From: Teichococcus aestuarii
Lineage (GTDB): Bacteria > Pseudomonadota > Alphaproteobacteria > Acetobacterales > Acetobacteraceae
DNA: 64,000 bases
Assembly (NCBI RefSeq): GCF_003116135.1
Contig: NZ_PDOA01000005.1
Location: 124,001 to 188,000, forward strand
Direction of reading: 5' to 3'
Shown one piece after another: positions 162 through 13,749 of this stretch (position 1 is the first letter of the stretch; each line of letters starts with the position of its first letter). Below the pieces are notes generated by a model. The model had not been told where the DNA came from and ran no database searches. It worked only from the letters and a program-made list of their open reading frames with translations. A program made the translations under genes and the position numbers.

Positions 162-812
162 TTACTGGCTGGCCCACAGGATGCGGTGCATCCACAGGAC
201 CTCCGAGAGATCGAAGCTGTAGTGCGGATGGGCCGGGTTGAGGCTGGCCAGCTCGATCCGCCGGGCGGATTGCCGCACCAGCTCCTTGGCCATCACCTCG
301 CCCTTCACCGTGCGCACCACCACTCGGTCCCCCCGCCGCACCGGCGAGTTGGGGGAGACGATGATGATGTCCCCGTCGCGGAACACCGGCTCCATGCTGT
401 CGCCGGAGATTTCCAGCGCATAGGCGTTGGGATCGGCCAGTTCGGGCGAGCTGATCTCGTCCCAGCCGGCGCCGACGGGGTAGCCGCCATCGCCGAAATA
501 GCCGTCGCTGCCCGCCTGGGCCATGCCGATCAGCGGGATTCGCCGGCCGGCCATGCTGCGCGCGCCGGCGCTGTGGAGCGCCGGCGCGCCGGTCACGAGG
601 GAGGCGAAGCTGTCCATCTCCGTGCCGGTGGCGGAGAGGATCTTGGCGATGCTCTCGGTGGAGGGCCAGCGGGCGCGCCCGTCCGCGCCGACGCGCTTCG
701 ACGGGTTGAAGGCGGTAGGGTCAAGCCCGGCCTTGCGAGCAAGGCCGGAGGGGGACAGGCCGTGCTCGGCTGCCAGGGCATCGACCGCCCGCCAGATATC
801 GTCATGACGCAT
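162..812 (-). CDS. LexA/CI-like repressor, XRE-type HTH plus S24 autopeptidase
   Basis: This 216-residue protein has a helix-turn-helix-like N-terminus (about residues 18-45, with LSPSGLARKAGL) and a C-terminal S24 peptidase domain. The catalytic serine is S139 in SGDSMEP and the catalytic lysine K176 in VMAKELV. An Ala-Gly pair at 100-101 (MAQAGSDG) sits where LexA and CI proteins self-cleave. These residues support RecA-stimulated self-cleavage and thus SOS induction, as known for the family. It is divergent from the early genes of the adjacent phage operon and is probably the prophage repressor. Its promoter would give a transcript starting at or next to the ATG, so the mRNA appears leaderless. 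A host-encoded S24 regulator is the alternative. Confidence 0.88.
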   Translation of the reverse strand: MRHDDIWRAVDALAAEHGLSPSGLARKAGLDPTAFNPSKRVGADGRARWPSTESIAKILSATGTEMDSFASLVTGAPALHSAGARSMAGRRIPLIGMAQAGSDGYFGDGGYPVGAGWDEISSPELADPNAYALEISGDSMEPVFRDGDIIIVSPNSPVRRGDRVVVRTVKGEVMAKELVRQSARRIELASLNPAHPHYSFDLSEVLWMHRILWASQ

Positions 813-818
813 GGGCCA

Positions 819-847
819 ATTATCCTAGGCGGGCAATCCCGAATCAA
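819..847 (-). promoter_or_regulatory. Repressor promoter (PRM-like), leaderless
   Basis: On the minus strand a -35 TTGATT (842-847), a 17-bp spacer and a -10 GATAAT (819-824) precede the repressor ATG at 812-810. The predicted start of transcription falls about 7 bases past the -10, on or beside the A of the start codon, with no room for a ribosome binding site. Lambda cI made from PRM is the known precedent. Inferred from sequence only. Confidence 0.65.
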
Positions 848-885
848 TAGGAACATGATCACATTTAGGTGTTGACGCCTAGGAT
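822..885. promoter_or_regulatory. Paired operator sites for the S24 repressor
   Basis: A 10-bp element atcctaggcg at 822-831 recurs as its exact reverse complement at 876-885, 44 bp apart. Each copy contains the palindrome CCTAGG. One copy touches the -10 of the repressor promoter, the other the -35 and spacer of the rightward promoter. A weaker related half site (taggtg, 866-871) lies between them and forms an imperfect dyad with the right copy. The layout is what is expected of operators serving both divergent promoters. Confidence 0.62.
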
Positions 886-901
886 GGCCGCTCGCAATGA
901 T
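872..901 (+). promoter_or_regulatory. Rightward early promoter (PR-like)
   Basis: A -35 TTGACG (872-877) is followed after 18 bp by AATGAT (896-901), a four-of-six match to the -10 consensus. It overlaps the right operator copy (876-885) and would transcribe the two early genes beginning at 939. The weak -10 keeps confidence moderate. Confidence 0.5.
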
Positions 902-938
902 GAACAGGTCATCAACCTAATGGCGAGGCAACGCCCCC

Positions 939-1370
939 ATGACGGCCGCTCTCCGCTCCAATGCCACCCCGGTTCTGGCTTCCCTGGCAAAGGCCGAGCC
1001 ATTCCGCAGCGCTGACGAAGCCTGGTTCTGGACGATGGCCGCGCTGACGGCGCGCCGCGACGGGGCGCGGGTGGTGGCCGGCGCCGGCCGCGCCATGCGC
1101 CCCTGCGAGCCGGACGACGTGGTGAAGTGCCTGGACCGTCTCTACCGCCAGCGCCGCATCGACCTCGTCCATGCCCGCATCATGCGCCTCTGGGGCGAGC
1201 GTGGCGTGGCCCCGGACCCGCGGCACCTTGCCGAGAAGAATGACTGGCGGATCTGGTCGGAAGCCATGCAGCGCCTGGAATGGCCGTTGCGGATCAAGGG
1301 TATCGTCGCCGGAGCCAGCCTCGGTGAGCCGGGCGAGGTGGTGGCCCTGCCGCGCCGGGGTGCGGCATGA
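939..1370 (+). CDS. Unknown early phage protein 1
   Basis: I do not recognise this 143-residue protein. It is basic, probably helical and rich in Trp (EAWFWTMAAL, KNDWRIWSEAMQRLEW), with a DDVVKCLDRLYRQRRID stretch that could be a small DNA- or RNA-binding helical unit. It is the first gene behind the PR-like promoter, divergent from the repressor, and overlaps the next gene by 4 bp (ATGA), so the two are co-translated. A GGCGAGG run lies about 10 bases before the ATG. Position alone makes it a candidate Cro-, antiterminator- or activator-type regulator; nothing in the sequence proves this. Confidence 0.7.
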   Translation: MTAALRSNATPVLASLAKAEPFRSADEAWFWTMAALTARRDGARVVAGAGRAMRPCEPDDVVKCLDRLYRQRRIDLVHARIMRLWGERGVAPDPRHLAEKNDWRIWSEAMQRLEWPLRIKGIVAGASLGEPGEVVALPRRGAA

Positions 1371-1843
1371 GCGCCGCCGGAAAGGGCGCGCCGCGGCGGC
1401 TCTCGCCACGGCATGCGCTGGCCGGGGAGGAGCAGCAGGTCTGGATCGGCTTCGGCGGGCAGGCGGATCAGGGCTGGTTGCGGCTGCTCCGGCCCGGCTT
1501 CCGCCATTGCTTTGCCGTCCTCCGCGACAAGGCGGGGTGGACGCTGGTGGAACCGCTCTCCGGCCGGCTGCTGGTGACGCGGGCCGAGTTGGCGGCCGGT
1601 TTCGATCTTCCGGGCTTCTATCGCCGCGCGGGCCTTTCGGTTGTGGGGCCATTCCGCCCGGGGCCGCCCGTGTCCCGCAATTGGCGGCCCGAGATAAGTT
1701 TTTATTCCTGCGTGCAGGTGTGCCGCGCCCTGCTGGGCGAGGGGGCGCCACGGGCGTTTACGCCCCATGGGTTGTATCGAGCGCTGGTAAATGAATCCTT
1801 GAATAGGAAAATAATCATTGACGCGACCCTGCAGCCTGGCTAA
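1367..1843 (+). CDS. Unknown early phage protein 2, possible permuted papain-like fold
   Basis: This 158-residue protein is not firmly assignable. It has a His in a hydrophobic strand (H47 in FRHCFAVL), then WTLVEPLSG (E62), then a helix starting with Cys (C115 in YSCVQVCRALLG) and TPHGLYRAL. The His-then-Cys order resembles circularly permuted NlpC/P60 proteins such as YiiX and LRAT, so a cysteine hydrolase-like fold is a plausible but unproven idea. It is translationally coupled to the previous gene. Its last codons are AT-rich and contain the late-operon promoter, whose -10 includes this gene's TAA stop. Confidence 0.68.
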   Translation: MSAAGKGAPRRLSPRHALAGEEQQVWIGFGGQADQGWLRLLRPGFRHCFAVLRDKAGWTLVEPLSGRLLVTRAELAAGFDLPGFYRRAGLSVVGPFRPGPPVSRNWRPEISFYSCVQVCRALLGEGAPRAFTPHGLYRALVNESLNRKIIIDATLQPG

Positions 1844-1846
1844 AGA
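1818..1846 (+). promoter_or_regulatory. Late structural-operon promoter (PR'-like)
   Basis: TTGACG (1818-1823), a 17-bp spacer and TAAAGA (1841-1846) form a good sigma70-type promoter within the AT-rich end of the preceding gene. Transcription would start near 1853, about 50 bases before the terminator at 1905 and about 130 before the first structural gene. No T7-type RNA polymerase gene is visible, so host polymerase would have to transcribe the structural genes from here. Confidence 0.6.
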
Positions 1847-1904
1847 TTTCCTCGTCAACGGGCGAGCTGCGCCCTGAGGCATCCTCCCGATCCCCGCACA
1901 CTGC

Positions 1905-1947
1905 GCGAGCCCGTCCGGACCCCCTCCGGACGGGCTCGCGGCTTTTT
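1905..1947 (+). terminator. Intrinsic terminator between late promoter and structural genes
   Basis: A perfect 15-bp stem (1905-1919 with 1925-1939), a five-C loop and a run of five T at 1943-1947 make a strong intrinsic terminator. It lies upstream of the whole structural operon and downstream of the promoter at 1818. Alternatively it simply ends the early transcript, and a promoter I cannot see lies beyond it. Confidence 0.85.
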
Positions 1948-1980
1948 GGGGGTCCTTCCGCCGCATCCCGAAGGAGCCAG

Positions 1981-2221
1981 CATGCGCATGGGTGGCCTGT
2001 TCCGCGCCCCGAAGCCGGTGGTCGTGACCCCGACCACGCCGGCCGAGCCCCCGCCCGCCGGCCCGACCCCCGAGGCCGCCGCCCAGGCCGCCCGGGTGGA
2101 GAACCAGACGCGGTCCCGCCGCGGGCTGGCGGGCACCATCACCACCTCCGCCCGTGGCGTGCTCGATGCCGCCCCCGCCGCCGGCCTCGCCGGTGCCCGC
2201 AAGACCCTGCTCGGGGAATGA
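1981..2221 (+). CDS. Small phage protein preceding the portal
   Basis: A 79-residue protein starts at the ATG behind a strong GAAGGAG site (1970-1976). It is Pro/Ala-rich in the middle and ends in RSRRGLAGTITTSARGVL...KTLLGE, a C-terminal pattern often seen in the small protein just before the portal of T7-like podoviruses. Function unknown. Four bases separate it from the portal start. Upstream ATGs in frame lack a ribosome site. Confidence 0.72.
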
Positions 2222-2225
2222 ACGC

Positions 2226-3653
2226 ATGAGCCTGACCCCGGAAACCCTGCTGGCCCGCCAGCAGGCGGCGCAGGACCGGCGCCGCCCCTGGGAGAGCATC
2301 TGGCAGGAATGCTACGATCACGTCCTGGCCCGCACCCCCGGCAGCGGCGGCCCGACGCTGTATGACGCGACGGCGCCCGACGCCGCCGAGCAGCTCGCCG
2401 CCAGCCTGCTGGCCGAGCTGACGCCGCCCTGGTCGCGCTGGTTCGGCCTCGCCCCCAGCCGCGCCCTGGCCGAGGGGCCGGACGCCGCCGCCGCCGCCGA
2501 GGCGCTGGAGCGGGCCACCGAGACGCTGCAGGGCCATCTCGACCGCTCCAACTTCGCGCTGGAGATGCACCAGGCCTTCCTCGACCTGGTGGTGGCCGGC
2601 ACCGGCGTGCTGCTGGTGGAGGAGGCGCCGCCCGGCGCCGCCTCCGCGCTGCGCTTCACCGCCGTGCCGCTGCGCGAGGCGGTGCTGGAGGAAGGCCCGG
2701 GCGGCCGGCTGGATACCGTCTATCGCAGCGTCATGCTGGACGCGGCGGCGATCGAGGCGCGCTACCCCGGCGCGCCGCTGCCGCCCGCCCTCCTGGCCGC
2801 GCGCGGGCCGGAGGAGGCGCCGCGCCGCCACCGCGTGGTGGAGGCCGTCTGGCCCGAGCGCCAGGGCAGCGCCTATCTCGCGGTGCTGGAATGGGAGGGG
2901 CAGGCGGTGCCGCTGGCCTCGGGCCGCTTCCTGGACAGCCCCTTCATCGCGTTCCGCTGGATGAAGCTGCCGGGCGAGACCTATGGCCGCGGCCCGGTGA
3001 TGAAGGCGCTGCCCGACATCCGCACCGCCAACAAGGTGGTGGAGCTGGTGCTGAAGAACGCCTCCATCGCCGCCACCGGCATCTGGCAGGCGGAGGATGA
3101 CGGGGTGCTGAACCCCGCCACGGTGAAGCTGGTGCCGGGCGCCATCATCCCGAAGGCGCCGGGTTCCTCCGGCCTGACGCCGCTGGCGGCGCCGGGCAAT
3201 TTCGATGTCTCGCAGCTCGTGCTGGACGACCTCCGGGCGCGCATCCGCGGCGCCCTGCTGGCCGACCGGCTGACCCTGCCGCGCCAGGCGCCGATGACGG
3301 CGACCGAGGTGCTCGAGCGCAGCGCCGAGAGCGCCCGCCTGCTCGGCGCCACCTATGGCCGGATGCAGGCCGAGCTGCTGACGCCGCTGATCGGCCGCTG
3401 CCTCTCCATCCTGCGCCGCCGCGGCGAAGTGCCGCCGGTGATGCTGGACGGGCGCGAGGCGCGGCTGACCTACCAGTCGCCGCTGGCCCGCGTGCAGGGC
3501 CGCGCCGACGCCGCCAACACGCTGCTGTTCCTGCAGGCCGTGGCGGCGCTGGGCCCCACGGCCGCGGCGCAGCTCGACCTGGCGGCGGCGACCCGCCACC
3601 TGGCCCGCACGCTCGCCGCGCCGGCCGGTCTCCTGAACCCCGTCGAGGAGTGA
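2226..3653 (+). CDS. Podovirus portal (head-to-tail connector) protein
   Basis: The 475-residue product matches the T7-type head-tail connector family in length and pattern: an N-terminal RRPWESIWQECYDHV segment, AEQLAASLLAELTPPWSRWF, then GRGPVMKALPDIRTANKVVE and a helical C-terminal part with MTATEVLERSAESARLLG. Portals form the dodecameric ring at the capsid vertex through which DNA is packaged and ejected. GGGGAA precedes the ATG. Scaffold and capsid genes follow directly, in T7 order. No break or missing region is visible, so the gene looks intact. Confidence 0.93.
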   Translation: MSLTPETLLARQQAAQDRRRPWESIWQECYDHVLARTPGSGGPTLYDATAPDAAEQLAASLLAELTPPWSRWFGLAPSRALAEGPDAAAAAEALERATETLQGHLDRSNFALEMHQAFLDLVVAGTGVLLVEEAPPGAASALRFTAVPLREAVLEEGPGGRLDTVYRSVMLDAAAIEARYPGAPLPPALLAARGPEEAPRRHRVVEAVWPERQGSAYLAVLEWEGQAVPLASGRFLDSPFIAFRWMKLPGETYGRGPVMKALPDIRTANKVVELVLKNASIAATGIWQAEDDGVLNPATVKLVPGAIIPKAPGSSGLTPLAAPGNFDVSQLVLDDLRARIRGALLADRLTLPRQAPMTATEVLERSAESARLLGATYGRMQAELLTPLIGRCLSILRRRGEVPPVMLDGREARLTYQSPLARVQGRADAANTLLFLQAVAALGPTAAAQLDLAAATRHLARTLAAPAGLLNPVEE

Positions 3654-3661
3654 CACCCCGC

Positions 3662-4396
3662 ATGTCCGAAAACCTGCTGGAACCCGCGCCGGCGCCCACG
3701 GGGTCCTCCCCGGCCCGGCCGGAGGATGTGCCGGAGAAGTTCTGGGACGCCGAGACCCAGTCGCTGCGCGTCGACGCGCTGCTGAAATCCTATCGCGAGC
3801 TGGAGAAGCGCCTCTCCCAGCGCGCCATGCCGCCGGCCGAGGACGCGCCGCAGGAGGAGCGCGCCCGCTTCCTGCGCGCCCTCGGCGTGCCGGAGACGCC
3901 GGAGGAGTATGCCATCGAGCCGCGCCACGAGATGTGCGGCCCGGACGCGGCGGTGAACGCCCGGCTGCACGCGGCCGGCTTCACCTGCCAGCAGGTGCAG
4001 CTGGTCTATGACCTCGCGGCCGAGCGGCTGCTGCCGCTGATCGCCGAGGCCGCCGCCGATTACGAGGCGCAGAAGCAGCGCGCGAAGCTGGCGCAGGAAT
4101 TCGGCGGCGAGGAGGCCTTCCAGCGCCTGGCGCCGCAGATCGCCGCCTGGGGCCGCGCCAACCTCGCGCCGCCGGTGTTCGAGGCGCTCTCCACAACTGC
4201 GGAAGGCGTGCTCGCCCTGCACCGCATGATGGCGAAGGGCGAGCCCAGCCTGGTGCGCGACGCCGAGCCCGCCGAGCAGCTCGACGAGCAGGCGCTGCGC
4301 CGGATGATGCGCGACCCGCGCTACTGGCGCTCGCGCGAGCCGGAATACGTCAAGCGCGTGACGGACGGCTTCCGGCGCCTGTTCGGCCAGGACTGA
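3662..4396 (+). CDS. Capsid assembly scaffolding protein
   Basis: This 244-residue acidic, helical protein opens with PEDVPEKFWDAETQSLRVD followed by ALLKSYRELEKRL, a signature of podoviral scaffolding proteins, which guide capsid polymerisation and leave the mature head. It lies between portal and major capsid genes as in T7 (gp9). The ATG at 3662 has GAGGAG eleven bases upstream; a GTG at 3650 overlapping the portal stop would add four residues. The C-terminal basic helix (YVKRVTDGFRRLFGQD) would be the capsid-binding end by analogy. Confidence 0.86.
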   Translation: MSENLLEPAPAPTGSSPARPEDVPEKFWDAETQSLRVDALLKSYRELEKRLSQRAMPPAEDAPQEERARFLRALGVPETPEEYAIEPRHEMCGPDAAVNARLHAAGFTCQQVQLVYDLAAERLLPLIAEAAADYEAQKQRAKLAQEFGGEEAFQRLAPQIAAWGRANLAPPVFEALSTTAEGVLALHRMMAKGEPSLVRDAEPAEQLDEQALRRMMRDPRYWRSREPEYVKRVTDGFRRLFGQD

Positions 4397-4483
4397 GGCC
4401 CGCCCGGCCCGGCCCCGCCTGCGGTCCTGGCCACCCCGGCCCCTTTCCGCCGCCGCGCAACCCGGCCTTCCGCCGGGTGCGGT

Positions 4484-4537: not shown

Positions 4538-4572
4538 CATCCCATTCTCCGCCCATGCTGAAGGAACACGGT

Positions 4573-5406
4573 ATGTCCGCTTCCATCGACCAGGTCTTCG
4601 CGAAGCAGTTCCAGTCCGAGGTGCACGACGCCTACCAGCGCCAGGGCAGCAAGCTGCGCCCGACGGTGCGCAGCAAGGGCGGCGTGCGCGGCGCCTCCAC
4701 CGTCTTCCCCGTGGTGGGCCACGGCACCGCGGCGGCCAAGGCGCGCAACGGCGCCGTGCCGGTGATGAACCTGGCGCATTCCAACGTCGAGTGCTTCCTG
4801 CAGGACTACTATGCCGGCGAGTGGATCGACCGGCTCGATGAGCTGAAGACCAACATCGACGAGCGCCAGGTGGTGGCCAATGCCGGCGCCTACGCGCTCG
4901 GCCGCAAGACCGACGAGCTGATCATCGCGGCGCTCGACACCGCCACCAACGAGGCGGTGGGCACCGCCGCCGGCACCACCGACACCGATGGCCTGACCCG
5001 CGCGAAGGTGCTGAAGGCCTTCGAGATGCTGGGCGCGGCCGATGTGCCGGACGACGGCAACCGCTTTGCCATCGTCGGCTGGAAGCAGTGGAGCGAGCTG
5101 CTGCAGATCGAGGAGTTCGCCAACAGCAACTATGTGGGCGATGCCGACCTGCCCTGGAAGGGCACGCAGGTGAAGCGCTGGCTGGGCGCGACCTGGATGC
5201 CGCATTCCGGCCTGACCAAGAGCGGCAGCCTGCGCTTCTGCTACTTCTACCACAAGACCGCGATCGGCCACGCCGTGGCGCAGGAGGTCTCGACCGACAT
5301 CACCTGGCATGGCGACCGCGCGGCCTACTTCGTCAACAACATGATGAGCCAGGGCGCGGTGCTGATCGACCAGGCCGGCGTGGTGCGCATGCGCACCGCC
5401 GAGTGA
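4573..5406 (+). CDS. Major capsid protein
   Basis: The 277-residue product resembles the compact HK97-fold capsid proteins of small podoviruses (Phage_capsid_2-type): MSASIDQVFAKQFQSEVHDAYQ at the N-terminus, DERQVVANAGAYALGRKTDELI in the spine-helix region, and a C-terminal GDRAAYFVNNMMSQGAVLID. Gene order, length and an AAGGA site eight bases before the ATG support the call. It is flanked by a hairpin upstream and a terminator downstream, so its expression is probably set separately from its neighbours. Intact. Confidence 0.92.
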   Translation: MSASIDQVFAKQFQSEVHDAYQRQGSKLRPTVRSKGGVRGASTVFPVVGHGTAAAKARNGAVPVMNLAHSNVECFLQDYYAGEWIDRLDELKTNIDERQVVANAGAYALGRKTDELIIAALDTATNEAVGTAAGTTDTDGLTRAKVLKAFEMLGAADVPDDGNRFAIVGWKQWSELLQIEEFANSNYVGDADLPWKGTQVKRWLGATWMPHSGLTKSGSLRFCYFYHKTAIGHAVAQEVSTDITWHGDRAAYFVNNMMSQGAVLIDQAGVVRMRTAE

Positions 5407-5413
5407 GGCGCGT

Positions 5414-5455: not shown

Positions 5456-5474
5456 CTGACGAAGGAGTTTCGCG

Positions 5475-6044
<570 letters not shown>

Positions 6045-6048: not shown

Positions 6049-7929
6049 ATGGCCGCCGGCCGCAGCACCAAGACCAGCTTCACCGCGGGCGAACTCGGCG
6101 ACCAGCTGCTGGGCCGGGGCGATCTGCGCGCCTTCGAGAACGGCGCGCGCCGCCTGCGCAACGTGTTCATCCAGCCCACCGGCGGCGTGACGCGCCGGCC
6201 CGGCCTGCGCCATGTGGCGACGCTGCCCGGCGCCGCGCGGCTGATCGCCTTCGAGTTCAACACGGAGCAGAGCTACCTGCTGGCGCTGACGCATCAGCGC
6301 CTCGACGTCTATCTGGGCGACCTGCTGGTGGCGACGCTGGCGGCGCCCTGGACCGGCGCGATGCTGGACCAGATCGCCCACACCCAGAGCGCCGACACGC
6401 TGCTGCTGCTGCATCCCGCGATGCCGCCGCAGCGCGTGACGCGCAGCAGCCACACGAGCTGGAATCTCGGCGGCTGGAACTGGATCGCCGCGCCGTTCTT
6501 CCGCTTCGCCGACCCTGGCGTGACGATGACGCCGGGCGGCACCACCGGCAGCGTGACGCTGACGGCGAGCGCACCCTTCTTCGAGGCCGGCCATGCCGGC
6601 TCGCAGCTCCGCATCGGCGGCCGGCGCGTGACGGTGACGGCGGTGGCCTCGGCCACCAGCGCCACCGCGCAGGTTGTGGAGACGCTGGCCGCGGCCGCGG
6701 CCACGCAGGACTGGGACGAGGCCGCCTTCAGCAGCGTGCGCGGCTGGCCGGCGACGGCCTGCTTCCACCAGGACCGCCTGGTGCTGGGCGGCTCGCGCGA
6801 CCTGCCGAACCGGCTCTGGCTCTCCCGCTCGGGCGATCTGTTCAACTTCGACCTCGGCACCGGCCTCGATGACCAGGCGATCGAGTTCGGCCTGCTGTCG
6901 GACCAGGTGAACGCCATCCGCGCGGTGTTCTCGGGGCGGCACCTGCAGGTCTTCACCTCGGGCGCCGAATGGATGGTGACGGGCGACCCGATGACGCCGG
7001 CCTCGATCCAGCTGCACCGGCAGACGCGCATCGGCATGCCGAACAGCCGCATCCTCCCGCCCGTCGACGTCGATGGCAGCACCATCTTCGTCGCCCGCTC
7101 CGGCCAGGCGGTGCATGAATTCGCCTATACCGACGTGCAGCAGGCCTACCAGGCGAGCGACCTGGCGATGATGGCGCGCCACCTGGTGCAGGACCCTGTC
7201 TCGCTGGCCTACGACCAGACGCGCCGCCTGCTGCATGTGGCGATGGCCGATGGCAGCCTCTCCACCCTGACGCTCTACCGCGCCGAGCAGGTGACGGCCT
7301 GGACCCGACAGGAGACGGAGGGTGCCTTCCGCGCCCTGGCCGAGATCGACGGCGTGGTGTGGTGCGCCGTGGAGCGCGCCGGCACGGTGCGGCTGGAGCG
7401 CTTCGACGATGCGCTCGCCGTCGATGCCGGGCTGACCGGCAGCGCCGACACGCCGAAGGCGCACTGGACGGGCCTCGGTCACCTTCAGGGCCGCGCCGTG
7501 CAGGTGGTGGCCGATGGCGCGCCGCACGGCACCTTCACCGTGCTGTCCGGCGGCGTGACGCTCGACGAGCCGGCCGGCGAGGTGCAGGTCGGTCTCGGCT
7601 TCAGCCATGTGATCGAGCCGCTGCCGCCGCAATTGCTGAGCGCCGGCGGCAGCCGCAGCGGCCCGTTGCGGCTGGTGGCCGCCAGCTTCCGCGTGCTGGA
7701 GACGGCGGCGCTCTCGGTCGATCTCGGCCGCGGCGCGCAGCCCGTGCCGTTCCGGCGGCTGGACACGGCGCTGCTCGACGCCGCGCCGCTCCGCTTCACC
7801 GGCGACGTGACGCTGCGCGCCTTCGGCTGGCGGCGCGACACGATGCGGCCGCTCTGGCGCATCGAGGGCGATACGCCGCTGCCGCTGACCCTGCTTTCCG
7901 TCACCATCGAGACGAGGATGACCGACTGA
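6049..7929 (+). CDS. Tail tubular protein B / tail nozzle protein
   Basis: This 626-residue protein starts with the nozzle signature: TSFTAGELGDQLLGRGDLRAF, then NVFIQPTGGVTRRPGLRHV. It is mostly beta-rich, as expected for the beta-propeller-like nozzle (T7 gp12) that closes the tail tube. FHQDRLVLGGSRDLPNRLW and SGDLFNFDLG are further family-like segments. The gene starts five bases after tubular A and shares a TGATG stop-start with the next gene. Intact over its length. Confidence 0.88.
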   Translation: MAAGRSTKTSFTAGELGDQLLGRGDLRAFENGARRLRNVFIQPTGGVTRRPGLRHVATLPGAARLIAFEFNTEQSYLLALTHQRLDVYLGDLLVATLAAPWTGAMLDQIAHTQSADTLLLLHPAMPPQRVTRSSHTSWNLGGWNWIAAPFFRFADPGVTMTPGGTTGSVTLTASAPFFEAGHAGSQLRIGGRRVTVTAVASATSATAQVVETLAAAAATQDWDEAAFSSVRGWPATACFHQDRLVLGGSRDLPNRLWLSRSGDLFNFDLGTGLDDQAIEFGLLSDQVNAIRAVFSGRHLQVFTSGAEWMVTGDPMTPASIQLHRQTRIGMPNSRILPPVDVDGSTIFVARSGQAVHEFAYTDVQQAYQASDLAMMARHLVQDPVSLAYDQTRRLLHVAMADGSLSTLTLYRAEQVTAWTRQETEGAFRALAEIDGVVWCAVERAGTVRLERFDDALAVDAGLTGSADTPKAHWTGLGHLQGRAVQVVADGAPHGTFTVLSGGVTLDEPAGEVQVGLGFSHVIEPLPPQLLSAGGSRSGPLRLVAASFRVLETAALSVDLGRGAQPVPFRRLDTALLDAAPLRFTGDVTLRAFGWRRDTMRPLWRIEGDTPLPLTLLSVTIETRMTD

Positions 7930-8369
7930 TGGCCCAGCTTGCCCCCATCGCCACGCTCGTCGGCACGGGTGCCTCGCTCTACGGCACGGTGCGCCAGGGC
8001 CAGGCGCAGGCCGCCCAGGCCCGCGCCCAGCAGCAGCAGGAGGCCGCCAGCCTCGCCGCGCGCCAGCAGCAGATCGCGGCCCAGCAGGAGGCGGATGCGC
8101 GCGCGCGGCAGGACCGGCTGGAGCGCACCGTGGCCTCCACCCGCGCGCGCCTCGCGGCGGCCGGTGTCAGCCCGGACCAGGGCTCTGCCGCCGCCATCAC
8201 CACCGGGCTGGAGCAGGATGCCGCGGAGACGGCGCAGGGCAGCCAGGAGGCGGCCGCCGCGCGCATGGCGGCGGGCCGCAGCTCGCTGCTGCGCGAGGAT
8301 GGCTCGCTGACCACCTGGCTGCGCGCCGGCTCCAGCTTCGGCGGGGCGCTGCGCTCGCTGCTGGACTAG
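7929..8369 (+). CDS. Internal virion protein-like (T7 gp14-type)
   Basis: A 146-residue protein with a short hydrophobic N-terminus (LAPIATLVGTGASLYGTV), a long Gln/Ala-rich helix (QAQAAQARAQQQQEAASLAA) and RTVASTRARLAAAGVSPDQGSA. This resembles T7-type internal virion protein B, which is ejected with DNA and helps form the channel across the envelope. It overlaps the nozzle stop by one base (TGATG). The other two large T7 internal proteins (gp15, gp16) are absent, so the ejection apparatus here is minimal. Confidence 0.65.
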   Translation: MAQLAPIATLVGTGASLYGTVRQGQAQAAQARAQQQQEAASLAARQQQIAAQQEADARARQDRLERTVASTRARLAAAGVSPDQGSAAAITTGLEQDAAETAQGSQEAAAARMAAGRSSLLREDGSLTTWLRAGSSFGGALRSLLD

Positions 8370-8435: not shown

Positions 8436-10772
8436 ATGGCCGAGCATATCCGCATCGGCGACATCACGCCGCGTGTGCATTACGCGGCGGATGGCGCGCT
8501 GACCACCTTCGTCTATCCCTTTCCCATCTTCGAAGCCGGGGACCTGGAAGTCCGCGTCGACGGCCTCGTGCAGTCCGGTGGCTACGCGGTGCAGGGCGCC
8601 GGCGCCTCGGAAGGCGGCACGGTGGTGTTCGACGCGCCGCCCGGCGCCGGGCGGCAGGTGCTGCTGCGCCGCGTGCTGCCGATCGAGCGCGTCACGGACT
8701 TCCAGCCGAACGGCGTGCTGCGCGCCAAGGTGCTGAACGACGAGCTGGACCGGCAGACCGCGATCCTGCAGGGCCTGCGCGACGAGATCGCCAACACGGT
8801 GCGCACGGGGCCGGGCGACCTGCCGGCGCAGCTGGTGCTGCCCGGCCGTGGCGGCCGCGCCAACCGGCTGCTCGGCTTCGACAGCCTGGGCAACGTCACC
8901 GCCGTGCCGCGCGAGCCGGTGCTGGAGGCGCCGTTCGAGGGCGCCATCCCGCGCACCGTCGAGGACAAGCTGGCCGAGCGGCTGACCGCGCGCGACTTCG
9001 GTGCGGCCGGAGACGGGATCAGCGATGACGGCCCCGCCCTGCAGGCAGCGATGAACGCCGCCGCCGCCGCCGGAAAGCTGCTGGAGATCGGCGAGGGCAG
9101 CCACCGCACCAGCATGCCGCTGGTGCTGCCGGGCGCCGCCGCCGGGCTGATCATGCGCGGCAGCATCGTCTATGCCGGGCTCGGCGGCGAGGCGGCGCTG
9201 ACCATCGGCGACGGCGCCGCGACGCGCAACCAGGCAAAGCTCTACCAGGGGCTGCGCGTGCTGCGCGCCAGCCTCTCCGACTGGGCCAGCGAGGCGGATA
9301 TCGGCCTGCTGCTGCGCAACCTCGATGCCTGCCTCGTCGAGATCCGCCAGGTGGAGGGTTTCACCATCGGCGTCCGCACGCTGGGCGACGAGCTGGGCTT
9401 CGAGGACAGCACGCTGCATCTCGGCCGGCTGGTGAACAACCGCATCGGCCTCGACATCCGCACCAGCAGCGCCGCCGCCTGGAACAATTCCATCCGCTAC
9501 GTCGGCGGCCACTTCGCCAACAGCGGCAGCGTGCATCCGGAGATCTCGCGCTTCGGCGTGCGCTTCTCCTGCGCGCCCGGAGCCTATCCGCGGCACAATG
9601 CGCACACCTTCTACGGCCCCGCCTTCGAGCTGCAGCGCCAGGGGACGCCCGGCACGGTGGACGCCATCCCCTTCCTGCTGGAGGCGGGGGACGAGCGCGG
9701 CATCGTCGCGCGCAATGTTCGCATGGAGCAGTGCAGCCCGTATGTGGCGCGGCATGCCGGTGGCGCCAATGACTGCCTCTACGAGGTGGCCTATGCCGGC
9801 ACCTACGCCTTCACCGGCGCCGCCATCGACTACACCGCGGCGGCCACGCGCGCCGGCGGCACGGTGGTGGCGCTGCACCAGGCGACGGCGGCGCATGGCG
9901 CCCCCCGCCTGGTGGCGGCGGCGGAGAATGTCCGGCGCCGCGCCTTCCGCCAGACGATCGACACGGCGGATGGCGTGGGGTTCGAGCAGATGGCTGTGCT
10001 GTCCGGCAACCCCGCCGGCCCGCCCGCCACGCTGTCCGGCTTCGCCTTCGCCGGCCTGTCGCAGATCACGCTGAATTCGGACAGCGTCGGCCTCCCGACC
10101 AGCCGCGCCCTCGCCTTCATCGTCGATTGCGGGGAGTGCAAGGAGTTCTTCCTCGCCGCCGAGGGCAGCGAGCTGCGCCCGGTGGTGATGCAGTTCGACG
10201 CCGGCGAGGCGGTGCTGGGCGAGGCGAGCCGCGTCATGCTCTCCAACATGAACACGCTGTGGTCGGGCAGCCCGAGCCATTTCTGGGAGGGCAACGCCGA
10301 TCTCGACAGCCTGGTGGGGGGCTTCCCGATCAACCGTCTGCAGCGCGTCACGCTGCACGCCAATGCGCGCTACGCCGCCATCGGCGTGCGCGGCGGCTCC
10401 GCCGGCGCGGTGCTGAAGGCGCTGCGCCTCTACTGCTCGCCGCTGCATTCGCCCGCGCTGGTCTATGGCGGCGGCCGCAGATGGGGCGTGCGCGAATACA
10501 CCGGCAGCCTCGATTTCGACCTGGGGAACCTCGCCGCCGGCGCCGCCGCCACGCAGGTGGTGCCGGTGCCCGGCGTGGTCGGCGGCGACTTCGTGCAGGC
10601 CAGCTACACCGCCCTCTCGGCCTTCGTCGAGACGGTGCCGACCATCACCACCTCGGCCACGGCCGGCGCCCCGGGCACGGTGACGGTGCAGTTCCGCAAC
10701 CGCCATGCCTCCACGGCCATCGACCTGGCGGCCGGCACGCTGTTCGTGCGCGCCGTGAAGCCGCGCCTGTGA
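8436..10772 (+). CDS. Tailspike with T7-tail-fibre N-terminus and pectate-lyase-like domain
   Basis: The 778-residue protein starts with a virion-attachment domain like that of T7 tail fibres (ALTTFVYPFPIFEAGDLEVR, VLPIERVTDFQPNG, LNDELDRQ). From about residue 185 it shows the head of pectate-lyase-3-type beta-helix proteins (TARDFGAAGDGISDDGPALQ). The long centre fits a beta-helix receptor-binding or polysaccharide-degrading spike. It would recognise the host surface glycan. The C-terminus is beta-rich (PTITTSATAGAPGTVTVQF). Catalytic residues cannot be named from sequence alone. Upstream 8370-8435 holds a small GC-rich dyad and no clear ribosome site. Confidence 0.88.
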   Translation: MAEHIRIGDITPRVHYAADGALTTFVYPFPIFEAGDLEVRVDGLVQSGGYAVQGAGASEGGTVVFDAPPGAGRQVLLRRVLPIERVTDFQPNGVLRAKVLNDELDRQTAILQGLRDEIANTVRTGPGDLPAQLVLPGRGGRANRLLGFDSLGNVTAVPREPVLEAPFEGAIPRTVEDKLAERLTARDFGAAGDGISDDGPALQAAMNAAAAAGKLLEIGEGSHRTSMPLVLPGAAAGLIMRGSIVYAGLGGEAALTIGDGAATRNQAKLYQGLRVLRASLSDWASEADIGLLLRNLDACLVEIRQVEGFTIGVRTLGDELGFEDSTLHLGRLVNNRIGLDIRTSSAAAWNNSIRYVGGHFANSGSVHPEISRFGVRFSCAPGAYPRHNAHTFYGPAFELQRQGTPGTVDAIPFLLEAGDERGIVARNVRMEQCSPYVARHAGGANDCLYEVAYAGTYAFTGAAIDYTAAATRAGGTVVALHQATAAHGAPRLVAAAENVRRRAFRQTIDTADGVGFEQMAVLSGNPAGPPATLSGFAFAGLSQITLNSDSVGLPTSRALAFIVDCGECKEFFLAAEGSELRPVVMQFDAGEAVLGEASRVMLSNMNTLWSGSPSHFWEGNADLDSLVGGFPINRLQRVTLHANARYAAIGVRGGSAGAVLKALRLYCSPLHSPALVYGGGRRWGVREYTGSLDFDLGNLAAGAAATQVVPVPGVVGGDFVQASYTALSAFVETVPTITTSATAGAPGTVTVQFRNRHASTAIDLAAGTLFVRAVKPRL

Positions 10773-11092
10773 GCCGCACCGAACTTGTCGCGGAGGAATT
10801 GCAGCGTGCCATCCGGCATGTGGTGGACGACTACAACGCCTTCGTGGTGCGCGGGCCCGTGCCCGGCACGCATGACGATGCCAAGGCCTTCGCCGCGCAC
10901 CATGCCGCGGCGAAGGCCGCCCTGACGCATCTGGAGCACCTGATGAAGCTCGCCCGCGCGGCCTGCGCGAGCGGGGAGGAGCAGGGCATGGCGCATGCCG
11001 TGGCCCTGCTGCGCCAGGCGCGCGGCGCCCTGGCCGATGCCTCTCTAGAGGCTGAGGAGGAGAGCGACACCGATGACGGAGCCGCCGGTTGA
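10769..11092 (+). CDS. Small helical phage protein, candidate small terminase
   Basis: A 107-residue protein begins at a GTG overlapping the tailspike stop (GTGA) and overlaps the large terminase start by 20 bp. It is almost wholly helical (VAEELQRAIRHVVDDYNAF, AAAKAALTHLEHLMKLAR) with an acidic tail (EAEEESDTDDG). I do not recognise the family. Its place directly before the large terminase is where T7 has the small terminase gp18, so a DNA-recognition role is a positional inference. No classical HTH is obvious. Confidence 0.72.
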   Translation: MSRTELVAEELQRAIRHVVDDYNAFVVRGPVPGTHDDAKAFAAHHAAAKAALTHLEHLMKLARAACASGEEQGMAHAVALLRQARGALADASLEAEEESDTDDGAAG

Positions 11093-12518
11093 GCTGATCG
11101 AGTTCGTCTGGGTCTGGAACATCGAGGCGGGGCAGGACACGCCCGCCGTGCACCGGCGCATCCTGCGCTGGCTGGCGGGCCGCCGCGCGGCCGGCGACAA
11201 CCGGCTGCTGCTGATGGCTTTCCGCGGCTGCGGCAAGTCCACGCTGGTCGGCCTCTACTGCGCCTGGCTGCTGGCGCGCTGGCCGGAGACGCGGATCCTG
11301 GTGCTGGCGGCCGACCACCCGCTGGCCACCAAGATGGTGGCCACGGTGCGGCGCATCATCGAGCGGCACCCGCTCTGCCGCCACCTGCTGCCGGACGCGC
11401 CGGAGGCCTGGGCGTCGGACCGCTTCGCCGTCCGCCGCGCCGGCGCGCTGCGCGACCCCTCGATGCTGGCCGCCGGCCTCGGCGGCAACATCACGGGCAC
11501 CCGCGCCGACGTCATCATCTGCGACGATGTCGAGGTGGCCGGCAATTGCGACACGCCGGGCAAGCGCGCGGAGCTGCGCGAGCGGCTGGCGGAGACGGAG
11601 TTCATCCTGACGCCGGGCGGCACGATCCTCTATGTCGGCACGCCGCACTGCGCGGAAAGCCTCTACGTGCCGCCGGGCACGGAGGGCGCCTATCTCGCCG
11701 GCTACCGCCGCCTGGTGGTGCCGCTGCTCGACGCTGCCGGCGGCAGCGCCTGGCCCGAGCGCTTCCCCGTGCCGGCGGTGGAGCAGCTGCGCGACCGCGT
11801 CGGCCCGCTGCACTTCACCCGCCAGATGCTGTTGCGCGCCGTCTCGGCGGGGGCCGCGCGCTTCGATCCGGCGCAGATCATCCGCTACGCCGAGGAGATC
11901 GACTACCGCGAGGCGCTGGGGCGGCCGGTGCTCAGCCTGCTCGGCCGCCGCATGGTCTCGGGCGGCGGCTTCTGGGACCCCGCCTATGGCCGCCCCGGCC
12001 GGGGCGACGGCAGCGTGCTGGCGGCCTGCTTCGCCGATGCGGAGGGCAACCACTACCTGCACCGCCTGGCCTACCTGACGCACGATCCGGATTCACCGGA
12101 GGACCCGGCCACCCAGCAATGCCGGCAGGTGGCGCGTCTCGCCGGCGAGCTGATGCTGCCGGTGCTGCGGGTGGAGACGAACGGCATTGGCCGCTTCCTG
12201 CCCAGCCTGCTGCGGCGGGAACTGGCGCGTGCCGGCGCCGCCTGCGCCGTGGTCGAGCAGCACAGCCACCGCCCGAAGCAGGAGCGCATCCTGGCGGCGC
12301 TGGACCCGGTGCTGGCGGGGCGGCGCCTGCATGCGCATGCCCAGGTGTTCCGCACGCCCTTCGCCGCCGAGCTGGCGGAATGGAAGCCCGACACGCCCGG
12401 CACGCGCGACGACGCGCTCGATGCGCTCTCCGGCTGCCTGCTGGCCGAGCCGGTGCGCCTGCCGGGATTGCCGCCCGCGCCGCGGCCGCCTGGATGGCGC
12501 GGCATGGCGGCGCAATAA
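11073..12518 (+). CDS. Terminase large subunit
   Basis: This 481-residue packaging motor has a Walker A at residues 50-57 (FRGCGKST), a Walker B near 146-154 (DVIICDDVE), and a nuclease domain with the RuvC-like acidic positions FWDPAYGRPGRGDG and TRDDALDALSG. The ATPase translocates DNA into the head through the portal and the nuclease cuts concatemers. All expected motifs are present, so packaging could still work. It lies near the end of the operon as in T7 (gp19). An AT-rich patch follows the TAA stop. Confidence 0.94.
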   Translation: MTEPPVELIEFVWVWNIEAGQDTPAVHRRILRWLAGRRAAGDNRLLLMAFRGCGKSTLVGLYCAWLLARWPETRILVLAADHPLATKMVATVRRIIERHPLCRHLLPDAPEAWASDRFAVRRAGALRDPSMLAAGLGGNITGTRADVIICDDVEVAGNCDTPGKRAELRERLAETEFILTPGGTILYVGTPHCAESLYVPPGTEGAYLAGYRRLVVPLLDAAGGSAWPERFPVPAVEQLRDRVGPLHFTRQMLLRAVSAGAARFDPAQIIRYAEEIDYREALGRPVLSLLGRRMVSGGGFWDPAYGRPGRGDGSVLAACFADAEGNHYLHRLAYLTHDPDSPEDPATQQCRQVARLAGELMLPVLRVETNGIGRFLPSLLRRELARAGAACAVVEQHSHRPKQERILAALDPVLAGRRLHAHAQVFRTPFAAELAEWKPDTPGTRDDALDALSGCLLAEPVRLPGLPPAPRPPGWRGMAAQ

Positions 12519-12523
12519 AAAAA

Positions 12524-12566
12524 TTGCCATTCGAATTCACTTTTTGTTGATAATAGCCCGAATGGC
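12524..12566 (+). promoter_or_regulatory. AT-rich promoter-like patch flanked by an 8-bp inverted repeat
   Basis: Directly after the terminase lies a conspicuously AT-rich stretch. TTGCCA (12524-12529) and GATAAT (12549-12554; TTGATA at 12547 gives 17-bp spacing) could form a promoter. gccattcg at 12526-12533 is exactly complementary to cgaatggc at 12559-12566, placing one arm on the -35 and the other near the start of transcription. It could be a regulated promoter for the lysis genes or a weak terminator stem. Confidence 0.35.
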
Positions 12567-12606
12567 CCGTAAGGTTCCTCCGTCAGCGCCGCAATTGCGC
12601 CTTGGC

Positions 12607-12831
12607 TCAGGCAGCCCGCCGGGTTTTCAGCACGTCCGCCGCATGCCGCGCTTCCCCCTCGGCCGTCAGCCGGAAGCGCCCGTCCGCGCGTGGCGCGGCG
12701 AGGCCCATGCCAGCCAGCCGGTGCAGGCAGGGGCCATCCTTCAGCCCATCGGGCCGGCCCAGCGGGCCCGCCAGGCGCAGCCTGTGCAGCGCCGAGCGGC
12801 AGCAGGTCTCAAGATACGGCTCGTTCCACAT
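12607..12831 (-). CDS. Small winged-helix-like phage protein
   Basis: On the opposite strand between terminase and lysis genes, a 74-residue reading frame starts MWNEPYLETCCRSALHRL and ends DGPCLHRLAGMGLAAPRADG, RFRLTAEGEARHAADVL. The second half has the alternating pattern of a winged-helix hairpin (a GLA...GRFRLT wing), seen in small phage-associated proteins of this group. No function known. The start is chosen because upstream codons look non-coding; GGAACG before the ATG is a weak ribosome site. It runs against the phage operon, so it may be a moron or regulator. Confidence 0.5.
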   Translation of the reverse strand: MWNEPYLETCCRSALHRLRLAGPLGRPDGLKDGPCLHRLAGMGLAAPRADGRFRLTAEGEARHAADVLKTRRAA

Positions 12832-12925
12832 CGTTCCATCGCAACCGTCACGGCAGGCGTCGGTGCCCCCTTCCCGGAGGGTGGCGCCGGCGCCTGTGGT
12901 GTTCAAGAAGGCCAAGGAGGGCCGG

Positions 12926-13282
12926 ATGAACCCGCTTGATCTGGAACCCCAGACGCTGGCCACCGTCGCCCAGGCCCCGATCCTGGTGCTGCTCGCCTGG
13001 ATGCTGCGCGGCTTGCGCCGTGGCGCGGACGAGCGCTGCGGCGAGGAGGCGCCGCGGGCCGACTACGACGCGCTCGCGCGCACGCGGGACGAGCTCGCCG
13101 CCTTCAAGCTGGAGGTGGCGCGCACCTATGTGCCGCTGTCGCTGATCCGCGATGTCGACCAGCGCCTCAGCCGGCAATTGCTGCGCATCGAGGAGAAGCT
13201 CGATGCGGCCACCCGAGCCGCCACGGCTGCTGCGGCCCTGCAATCCGCCCAGCGTGGCTGGCGCTCCGAAGACCGCAGCTGA
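12926..13282 (+). CDS. Small membrane protein of the lysis module (holin-like)
   Basis: The 118-residue protein has one N-terminal membrane segment (about residues 13-28, AQAPILVLLAWMLRGL) and a cytoplasmic helix with EVARTYVPLSLIRDVDQRL and RIEEKLDAATRA. Proteins with this layout commonly sit next to endolysins in alphaproteobacterial prophages and may act as holin or membrane anchor. AAGGAGG lies six bases before the ATG. It directly precedes the broken endolysin gene by 13 bases. Confidence 0.72.
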   Translation: MNPLDLEPQTLATVAQAPILVLLAWMLRGLRRGADERCGEEAPRADYDALARTRDELAAFKLEVARTYVPLSLIRDVDQRLSRQLLRIEEKLDAATRAATAAAALQSAQRGWRSEDRS

Positions 13283-13295
13283 GAGAGCCCCTCAC

Positions 13296-13749
13296 ATGAG
13301 CATCGCCCTGTCCCGCACCATCGACGTGCTGACCCTGCCGGCCCAGGACATCCTGGCCATGACCCTCTGGGCCGAGGCCGGCACCCGCCCGGTCCGCGCC
13401 ATTGAGGGCGCTGGCCGCGACCATCATGAACCGCGTCCGCCTGGCCGAGAGCGGCGCGGTGACGCATTGGGGCCAGGGGCTGTCGGCCATCTGCCGCGCG
13501 CCCTTCCAGTTCTCCTGCTGGAACCGCAACCACCTGCGCCATGCGCTGATGCTGGCCATCCCGCCGGGCGACCCGGCCTATGCCATCTGCCGCCGCATCG
13601 CCGTGCGCGCCGCCTCCGGCGCCCTGGCGGACTCCACCGGCGGCGCCACCCACGCGCATGACGTGGACGAGCTGCCGCCCTGGGCGGTCGGCGTGCCGCC
13701 GCTGGCCGAGATCGGCTGCATGCTGTTCTACCGCGTCGAGCCCCGCTAA
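13296..13749 (+). pseudogene. SleB-type cell-wall hydrolase (endolysin), frameshifted
   Basis: Two frames together encode one SleB/Hydrolase_2-type peptidoglycan hydrolase of about 150 residues. The first frame from the ATG at 13296 gives ...DILAMTLWAEAGTRPVRAIE, containing the conserved WAEA with the likely catalytic Glu. Then the frame shifts and continues as ALAATIMNRVRL, THWGQGLSAICRAPFQFSCW up to the stop at 13749. The break is at a GGG run (13406-13408): one extra G separates GAG from GCG. Either the endolysin is dead or the base is a sequencing error. Programmed frameshifting is unlikely here. Confidence 0.82.

What the first reader, a model, noticed from the sequence alone, without database searches (positions are those of the whole stretch)
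162..13749. Compact T7-order prophage without replication or integration genes
The locus goes from an S24 repressor straight to portal, scaffold, capsid, tail tubular A and B, internal protein, tailspike, terminase and lysis genes in T7 order. No integrase, RNA polymerase, DNA polymerase, primase or helicase is seen, and structural and packaging genes look intact. Such a layout suggests either a decayed prophage or a host-kept particle-making unit (a podovirus-based gene-transfer-agent analogue). If the gene set is conserved at the same place across relatives, it would be an undescribed kind of system. This is a hypothesis.
Basis: partly seen in the sequence, partly recalled or inferred. Interest (0 to 1): 0.8.

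Follow-up and report, generated by a model that had tools for sequence, protein, structure and literature searches.

The report
Ancient host-kept T7-type particle cluster
A 13.6-kb set of T7-like phage head, tail, DNA-packaging and lysis genes, with no genes seen to copy or integrate itself, has been kept by many Alphaproteobacteria and looks like an undescribed short-tailed gene transfer agent, although no particle or gene transfer has yet been tested.

Summary
Window 162-13749 carries an S24 repressor and a T7-order head, tail, packaging and lysis set between host genes (mprF-like left, DUF952-mmcB right). No integrase, replication gene or tRNA was found in the called genes around it. One correction: the lysis hydrolase is frameshifted in this assembly.

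It is not a strain-specific or decayed prophage. The capsid occurs once in 16 of 16 other same-genus genomes. In 387 Alphaproteobacteria a close capsid is found in 63 and a close TerL in 54 (both in 51, 26 families). Element and rpoB distances correlate (r 0.91, 49 genomes). Median dN/dS of capsid, TerL and portal is 0.04-0.12. In four genomes the portal lies 133 kb to 1.24 Mb from the capsid, which speaks against a self-propagating phage.

None of 40 genomes with the RcGTA marker has the close capsid. In 11 of 20 inspected genomes without it, the repressor stands directly beside DUF952. The repressor resembles Caulobacter RogA, which controls RcGTA-type production. Two genomes with the cluster group with Azospirillum, a genus with reported mitomycin-induced particles holding random ~10-kb host DNA.

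Best reading: a vertically inherited T7-type gene transfer agent. Domestication is well supported; DNA transfer is inferred.

The parts
162..812 (-). REP: HTH + S24 LexA/CI-like repressor (216 aa), RogA-like
   Evidence: PF00717 2e-22; Ser-Lys pair and Ala-Gly site in 54 of 54 Acetobacteraceae homologues examined
819..901 (.). divergent promoter-like sites with an inverted pair of ATCCTAGGCG/CGCCTAGGAT boxes at 822-831 and 876-885 (candidate operators)
   Evidence: CCTAGG near the REP start in 46 of 85 loci, nearly all Acetobacteraceae, two or more in 5 (no chance expectation computed)
939..1370 (+). gene a (143 aa), unknown; first gene divergent from REP
   Evidence: conserved family, 30 sequences, 21 invariant columns; no usable Pfam match
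1367..1843 (+). gene b (158 aa), unknown; invariant His-Cys and Cys-Val positions
   Evidence: alignment of 38; no usable PDB, Pfam or PHROG match
1904..1940 (+). intrinsic-terminator-like hairpin between gene b and the structural genes
   Evidence: 16-bp perfect stem + T5; a stem of 10 or more pairs within 200 nt after b in 29 of 55 Acetobacteraceae loci against 5.2 expected
1982..2221 (+). gene c (79 aa), unknown
   Evidence: homologues in 45 of 73 named loci; phrog_831, unknown function, 7e-6
2226..3653 (+). portal / head-tail connector
   Evidence: PF12236 6e-125
3650..4396 (+). scaffold (T7 capsid assembly protein)
   Evidence: PF05396 4e-12
4573..5406 (+). major capsid protein (start codon may be 4555)
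   Evidence: PF19821 5e-81
5475..6044 (+). tail tubular protein A
   Evidence: phrog_394 4e-49
6049..7929 (+). tail tubular protein B / nozzle
   Evidence: phrog_376 1e-139
7932..8369 (+). internal virion protein, 145 aa
   Evidence: phrog_418 1.7e-7
8436..10772 (+). tailspike: T7 fibre-type anchor + pectate-lyase-like stretch
   Evidence: phrog_1640 8e-26; PF03906 1e-3 and PF12708 2e-4, both below the Pfam cut-off
10769..11092 (+). candidate small terminase (107 aa)
   Evidence: position before TerL; phrog_31793 of unknown function; inference
11073..12518 (+). large terminase, T7 type
   Evidence: NF033889 7e-123; GKST, DDVEV, WDP and DDxLDA conserved in an alignment of 53 (motif roles recalled)
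12926..13282 (+). candidate holin/spanin
   Evidence: phrog_29007 of unknown function; position before the hydrolase; inference
13296..13749 (+). SleB-type cell wall hydrolase, frame broken in this assembly
   Evidence: PF07486 7e-8 on 13402-13749; intact frames in relatives
13759..14115 (+). host flank: DUF952
   Evidence: PF06108 5e-27; next to REP in genomes without the cluster
14165..14656 (-). host flank: MmcB-like DNA repair protein
   Evidence: PF06319 2e-49

Best explanation
A T7-type temperate phage was captured early in alphaproteobacterial history and is now a vertically inherited, host-serving gene cluster that makes short-tailed, DNA-filled particles: a podovirus-type gene transfer agent. 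Proposed working: REP, a LexA/CI-like repressor, holds down the divergent a-b operon. DNA damage or another stress removes REP. Gene a and/or b then lets transcription pass the terminator after b into the structural genes, as GafYZ does in Caulobacter. Portal, scaffold, capsid and TerL build heads and fill them with host DNA; tubes and tailspike form the short tail; the holin-like protein and hydrolase lyse the cell. Shown here: gene content, conservation, vertical descent, purifying selection, dispersal in some genomes, a recurrent hairpin after b and conserved repressor residues. Inferred: induction, antitermination, particle formation, packaging of host DNA and its delivery.
For: Capsid once per genome in 16 of 16 other same-genus genomes; left flank gene in 15 of 20 and DUF952 in 16 of 20 relative loci read. 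Class draw: close capsid in 63 of 387 genomes, close TerL in 54, both in 51. REP-portal-capsid-TerL order in 19 of 40 other-family stretches. Portal and capsid on one contig but apart: 243 kb in G470, 1.24 Mb in G534, 152 kb in G362, 133 kb in G402. Element against rpoB distance r 0.91, 0 of 2000 permutations as high, 49 genomes. dN/dS medians: capsid 0.04, TerL 0.08, portal 0.12; rpoB 0.10. Intact frames: capsid 61 of 61, TerL 56 of 57 in named Acetobacteraceae-like loci. Short-branch group apart from phages, tail tube B support 97. TerL motifs kept. Zero overlap with the RcGTA marker.
Against: No particle, packaged DNA or transfer was observed. No large T7-type ejection protein was recognised in the cluster, while the wild relative MEP301 has one annotated, so DNA delivery may be incomplete or need recipient proteins. 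The hydrolase is frameshifted in this strain. Two Pseudoroseomonas species (L059, L074) lack the left end and much of the portal. The family draw finds the capsid in only 53 of 200 genomes. Of the 63 genomes with a close capsid, 12 lack a TerL at E 1e-60. Support for the element as one group is weak in portal (44) and moderate in capsid (75). The 13.6-kb cluster could fit in one T7-sized head, so self-packaging is not excluded where it is unsplit. Roles of a and b are unproven; the hairpin was found in only 6 of 31 other-family loci against 2.4 expected, and the number of terminator-like sites in the whole region is no more than chance.
Confidence: 0.75

Rival explanations
1. A domesticated particle with another job: for example a killing or signalling particle, or controlled lysis with DNA release, rather than gene delivery.
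For: Only one small internal virion protein is recognised, whereas MEP301 has an annotated 586-aa internal virion protein and MD-2021a has several large unnamed genes between its tail and TerL genes. PBSX of Bacillus is a known case of DNA-packing particles that kill (passage in PMC12946183).
Against: TerL, portal, scaffold and capsid are under purifying selection with conserved TerL motifs; a pure killing particle would not need them. No toxin family appeared in the profile scans.
Confidence: 0.17
2. A replication-defective or helper-dependent temperate phage or satellite that still moves between cells.
For: Gene order and repressor look phage-like; the IMG/VR scan returned 78 such contigs (return cap 80).
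Against: Recurrent flanks, usually one copy, host-like distances; halves far apart in several genomes; no capsid match in 72,556 plasmid records; among the 30 best phage records listed per search, portal at most 34.5% and TerL at most 32% identical, apart from one 5-kb unverified scaffold at 54%.
Confidence: 0.04
3. A decayed prophage.
For: Frameshifted hydrolase in this strain; truncated left end in two species; scaffold complete in only 27 of 34 other-family loci.
Against: Intact frames in nearly all loci for capsid, TerL, portal and tubes, dN/dS far below 1, wide retention.
Confidence: 0.03
4. Repeated independent phage insertion at one hot spot.
For: The REP-DUF952 junction is a recurrent boundary.
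Against: Element distances follow rpoB; no integrase or tRNA seen; the wild phages tried fall outside the group.
Confidence: 0.01

Closest known systems
RcGTA-type gene transfer agents (Rhodogtaviriformidae; RcGTA, CcGTA)
   Same: Phage-derived, without replication genes, vertically inherited, short branches, parts may be dispersed, in Alphaproteobacteria; a RogA-like repressor is present.
   Different: RcGTA is siphovirus-like (passage in PMC13420450); its marker PF13547 was not found in this genome or in any of the 63 genomes with the close capsid.
BaGTA (Bartogtaviriformidae)
   Same: Alphaproteobacterial GTA with a ~14-kb core cluster (passages in PMC9662315).
   Different: Described with an HK97-type capsid and an active virus-derived replication origin nearby; portal and terminase genes adjoin. 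Sequences not compared here.
FpGTA of Faecalibacterium
   Same: GTA-like element with short-tailed-phage proteins, in two operons, packaging ~9 kb DNA (passages in PMC12946183).
   Different: Gram-positive host; [quoted passage not shown] Sequences not compared here.
T7-like podophages (MEP301, EXVC031P, Acinetobacter phage MD-2021a)
   Same: Same head and tail gene order; in MEP301 portal-capsid assembly-capsid-tube A-tube B.
   Different: MEP301 carries RusA and ssDNA-binding genes, MD-2021a a recombinase, repressor, Cro and RusA; EXVC031P is annotated only as hypothetical proteins. Identity in portal or TerL 28-34%.
Caulobacter RogA-gafYZ control circuit
   Same: RogA is a 213-aa HTH + S24-like repressor of GTA activators (passages in PMC9632790); GafZ is described as an antiterminator (passages in PMC11150451).
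   Different: RogA is said to lack the key catalytic residues; REP here keeps them, and so do most REP homologues in genomes without the cluster. DUF6456 rings in Caulobacter but not in this genome (its link to GafY is recalled).

Membership tests
Gene transfer agent (viriform), general | Derived from a tailed phage, with no autonomous replication genes | tested here: met
Gene transfer agent (viriform), general | Co-evolves with host genomes, on short branches apart from phages | tested here: met
   group support 97 in tube B, 75 in capsid, 44 in portal
Gene transfer agent (viriform), general | Cannot package its whole own genome | tested here: inconclusive
   Likely in genomes with distant halves; head capacity unknown for the 13.6-kb unsplit form
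Gene transfer agent (viriform), general | Particles carry mostly random host DNA and transfer it | not testable with these tools
   Azospirillum particles with random ~10-kb DNA are reported in PMC3899980, not linked to this cluster
Rhodogtaviriformidae (RcGTA type) | RcGTA-type tail protein GTA_TIM (PF13547; choice of marker recalled) | tested here: not met
   absent in G000; 0 of 63 genomes with the close capsid
Bartogtaviriformidae (BaGTA type) | BaGTA-type TerL and capsid | not tested
   no BaGTA sequence was fetched
Autographivirus-like T7 phage | Own single-subunit RNA polymerase and replication genes | tested here: not met
   none recognised among the cluster's genes or the flanking genes scanned
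RogA orthologue (REP) | HTH + S24 architecture, ~213 aa, wide in Alphaproteobacteria | tested here: met
   216 aa; strong matches in 111 of 387 genomes, among them 22 of 40 with the RcGTA marker; Caulobacter RogA itself was not compared
RogA orthologue (REP) | Key catalytic residues missing, as reported for RogA | tested here: not met
   Ser and Lys present in 54 of 54 Acetobacteraceae REPs and in 18 and 17 of 20 homologues from genomes without the cluster
RogA orthologue (REP) | Binds GGAA-N4-TTCC boxes at the target promoter | tested here: inconclusive
   exact boxes 2 of 33 other-family, 2 of 20 no-cluster and 0 of 54 Acetobacteraceae loci; up to one mismatch 13 of 33, 8 of 20, 12 of 54 against 3.5, 2.1, 5.6 expected

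The most novel reading that the evidence does not exclude
Alphaproteobacteria hold a further, T7-type GTA family as old as the split of several orders. It complements RcGTA across the class, and RogA began as its repressor: where the podoviral cluster was lost, RogA stayed behind next to DUF952 and was re-used to control the RcGTA-type agent, as in Caulobacter. The orphan ~10-kb particles of Azospirillum lipoferum would be its product.
Probability: 0.4. Interest if true: 0.95.

Novelty: new variant of a known kind. Interest (0 to 1): 0.87.

Why it matters
GTAs of Alphaproteobacteria are known mainly from one siphovirus-like lineage and from Bartonella. Another type, with capsid and TerL found in 26 families of the 387-genome draw (in only one of which, f83, a weak RcGTA marker hit was seen in another genome), would mean that gene transfer by kept phage particles arose more than once in this class and is maintained by selection. 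It gives a concrete gene candidate for the unexplained Azospirillum particles and suggests that one LexA-like repressor family governs two unrelated particle systems. It also warns that virus catalogues (78 IMG/VR contigs returned) may file such host genes as viruses.

Tried and rejected
Decayed prophage, mobile phage or satellite, and hot-spot insertion were weighed and set aside (rival section). PDB, Pfam and PHROG searches with the alignment of gene b, and Pfam with gene a, gave nothing usable. A search for the Caulobacter RogA box gave modest enrichment and no exact box in the window's own family. Other palindromes upstream of REP gave no class-wide motif. A stricter terminator scan after b found 15 of 55 (0.8 expected) and 3 of 30 (0.7 expected). 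A Caulobacter RogA sequence could not be obtained. Searching plasmids with capsid or portal named no Azospirillum; DNA from other replicons did. Whether A. lipoferum 4B or B510 themselves carry the cluster could not be checked. The f72 genomes (G284, G381, G460, G586) have a close capsid but no TerL at E 1e-60, so they are not used as dispersal examples. G425 and G595 have the portal on another contig, but their capsid lies 136 and 477 bases from a contig end, so they are not used either. An earlier count said 5 of 17 for other-genus family genomes; the recount is 4 of 17.
Full report
What is there. The window lies in a 5.2-Mb genome (G000, contig C63:124001-188000). Between an MprF-like gene and DUF952 stands a 13.6-kb cluster: a leftward S24 repressor (REP), then rightward genes a, b and c, portal, scaffold, capsid, tail tubes A and B, a small internal protein, tailspike, a candidate small terminase, T7-type TerL, a candidate holin and a SleB-type hydrolase. 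The 19 kb to the left holds ordinary host genes by profile scan. No integrase, polymerase, primase, phage helicase or RNA polymerase was recognised in the cluster or in the flanking genes scanned. There is no tRNA in the 20 kb to the left, and the only one in the window is at 36.3 kb. The hydrolase frame is broken in this assembly, while relatives have it intact.

Conservation in the genus and family. The capsid occurs once in each of 16 other same-genus genomes, in 4 of 17 other-genus genomes of the family and in 4 of 24 from the rest of the class. Stretches of up to 20 kb from the 20 relatives in genus and family show the same gene order: the MprF-like gene on the left in 15 of 20, DUF952 on the right in 16 of 20, mmcB after it in 8 of 20. 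Some misses are contig ends (G004, G007, G012, G016). In G011 the left end and much of the portal are missing, and G021 and G031 show no MprF-like gene. A scan of named genomes gave 73 loci: Pseudoroseomonas, Roseomonas, Neoroseomonas, Falsiroseomonas, Pararoseomonas, Humitalea, Plastoroseomonas, Caldovatus, Rhodovarius, and outside the family Ferrovibrio, Geminicoccus, Magnetospirillum, Caenispirillum and unnamed MAGs. Of these 73, tail tube A is found in 72, tube B in 71, portal and TerL in 66 each, spike in 64, REP in 61, DUF952 in 38 and the MprF-like gene in 26. In an even draw of 200 family genomes 53 have the capsid, own included; three of them (G081, G084, G095) have a second, more distant copy.

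Class-wide spread. In 387 Alphaproteobacteria drawn evenly, 99 have a capsid match at E 0.001, in two sets: 63 genomes (own included) with a match at E below 1e-90, and 36 with weaker matches, 24-36% identical apart from a fragment in G506 at 61%. TerL at E 1e-60 is found in 54, once in each; 51 genomes have both, in 26 families; 12 have the capsid without such a TerL and 3 the reverse. I read stretches around 40 of the close capsids outside the family. In 19 of 40 REP, portal, capsid and TerL stand in the window's order. In 15 no portal is in the stretch, in 3 REP or TerL is not, and in 3 (L194, L195, L197) the order differs. DUF952 is in 10 of the 40, downstream in 8. In two Ferrovibrio loci (L120, L121) both the DinG-type gene on the left and DUF952 on the right are kept. 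The receptor-binding part of the spike is not conserved outside the family (0 of 40 full-length); fibre-like and radical SAM proteins stand there in L175.

Dispersal. A portal search of 20 chosen genomes found it in 20 of 20. On the same contig as the capsid it is 243 kb away in G470 and 1.24 Mb away in G534 (single-contig genomes), 152 kb in G362, 133 kb in G402, 69 kb in G258 (where the portal itself is in two pieces) and 11 kb in G249; in G306, G442 and G570 it is on another contig with the capsid well inside its own; in G412, G439, G544 and G567 it is within about 2 kb (which covers 15 of the 20). A phage cut up this way cannot easily transmit itself, yet its parts stay intact.

Selection and descent. 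Within the genus, dN/dS over up to seven pairs has medians of 0.04 (capsid), 0.05 (REP), 0.08 (TerL), 0.12 (portal), 0.15 (spike) and 0.19 (tube B, gene b), against 0.10 for rpoB and 0.155 for the MprF-like gene; single values reach 0.67 (hydrolase in the own pair; gene c and the candidate TerS in G006-G010). Frames cover at least 90% of the profile in 61 of 61 capsids, 56 of 57 TerL, 55 of 57 portals and 59 of 60 tube B genes of named Acetobacteraceae-like loci, and in 49 of 49 capsids, 36 of 38 TerL, 30 of 33 portals, 47 of 48 tube B and 27 of 34 scaffolds of other families (matches at a contig edge set aside). Concatenated portal, capsid, tube B and TerL distances follow rpoB distances in 49 genomes (r 0.91; 0 of 2000 permutations as high; 0.84 within 18 family genomes). 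This is not a formal reconciliation, and some deep branches differ (for example G328 and G383). In trees with wild relatives the element is one short-branch group with support 97 in tube B, 75 in capsid and 44 in portal. Inside it fall only MT838907, an unverified 5-kb faecal scaffold, and one recombinant second capsid in G095.

Phage relatives. Against 50,697 phage records, the 30 best rows listed per search show TerL at most 32% and portal at most 34.5% identical, apart from that scaffold at 54%. MEP301 and MD-2021a show what a fuller relative carries: RusA, an annotated internal virion protein (MEP301), and a recombinase, repressor and Cro (MD-2021a).

Control. REP and a are divergent, with promoter-like sites on both sides and an inverted pair of CCTAGG boxes. 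After b comes a perfect 16-bp hairpin with a T run. The number of terminator-like sites in the whole region (2) is not above shuffles (3.0), so its position matters more than its presence. Within 200 nt after b a stem of 10 or more pairs is present in 29 of 55 Acetobacteraceae loci (28 with at least 4 T in the next 12) against 5.2 in shuffles, and in 6 of 31 others against 2.4; stem sequences differ while pairing is kept. This layout of repressor, small operon, terminator and structural genes resembles late-gene antitermination and the GafYZ circuit of Caulobacter (PMC11150451, passages). The Ser-Lys pair and an Ala-Gly site for self-cleavage are present in 54 of 54 Acetobacteraceae REPs and less often in other families (Ser 18 of 26, Lys 16 of 26), so induction by DNA damage is plausible.

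Link to RogA and RcGTA. REP has the architecture and size of Caulobacter RogA (213 aa; PMC9632790, passages), but RogA is said there to lack the key catalytic residues that REP keeps. Strong REP matches occur in 46 of 63 genomes with the close capsid, 22 of 40 with the RcGTA marker PF13547 and 43 of 284 with neither. I read 20 REP neighbourhoods from genomes without the close capsid (chosen by hand out of 65): in 11 REP stands directly beside a divergent DUF952, in one more 2.8 kb away, and in 8 no DUF952 was seen in the stretch; 14 of the 20 carry the RcGTA marker, 9 of them with the direct junction. The DinG-type gene was seen on the far side in 9 of 20. These junctions look like empty sites for the cluster. 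The RcGTA marker and the close capsid do not co-occur (0 of 40; hypergeometric 5e-4, or 2.5e-3 with the 51 genomes that also have TerL; both inflated by shared ancestry). A published survey agrees: RcGTA-like clusters in 0 of 34 Acetobacterales, 0 of 12 Azospirillales and 0 of 15 Rhodospirillales OTUs (PMC6821227 Table 3, passage). Whether the cluster was lost from, or inserted at, the REP-DUF952 junction is not settled.

Azospirillum. DNA from other replicons identifies G362 as Niveispirillum cyanobacteriorum (100% over 20 kb). G258 and G570 group with Azospirillum: best plasmid records A. lipoferum, B510, A. oryzae, A. ramasamyi and A. thermophilum at about 80-90% over part of the query. PMC3899980 (passages) reports that mitomycin C releases particles of about 10 kb from A. 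lipoferum strains and B510, thought to hold random host DNA, with genes only guessed. This cluster is a natural candidate; those two strains were not checked.

Function. Conserved TerL motifs, portal, scaffold and capsid imply DNA packaging, and the missing replication and integration genes leave host DNA as the likely cargo. No large T7-type ejection protein was recognised in the cluster, so delivery may stop in the periplasm and depend on recipient uptake proteins, as is recalled for RcGTA; a ComEC-type gene is present but is common in bacteria. No particle has been seen. Domestication I put at about 0.95, GTA function at about 0.75.

Novelty. Nine full-text searches listed no paper on a podovirus-type GTA in Alphaproteobacteria; I read passages of ten papers, no whole text. 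[quoted passage not shown] Most subscription papers and nearly all preprints were not searchable.

Noticed in passing
window 13296-13749: The SleB-type hydrolase frame is broken in this assembly; relatives have it intact. Sequencing error and real mutation were not told apart.
   Followed up: partly
L059, L074 (P. vastitatis, P. deserti): REP, a, b and much of the portal are missing while the rest of the cluster stands: a case of partial loss.
   Followed up: partly
G258:C2:1262470-1280775: In an Azospirillum-like genome the portal match is in two pieces about 17 kb apart, as if something was inserted; not examined.
   Followed up: no
L387 (MT838907): An unverified human faecal 'Bacteriophage sp.' scaffold of 5 kb groups inside the element next to G360, a 1.6-Mb genome; probably a mislabelled bacterial fragment.
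   Followed up: partly
L035, L038, L041 between TerL and holin: The gap between TerL and the holin-like gene varies from about 0 to 1.9 kb between species, so a cargo site may lie there.
   Followed up: partly
window 12607-12963: A minus-strand small frame between TerL and the holin recurs in two relatives (L032, L035); function unknown.
   Followed up: no
L175 (Ferrovibrio-like, f83) 1.3-7.8 kb: Fibre genes and a radical SAM gene stand between internal protein and TerL, perhaps for fibre modification.
   Followed up: partly
L375 (G095:C259): A second capsid, 56% identical, sits with a distant portal: apparent recombination between the kept cluster and a phage.
   Followed up: partly
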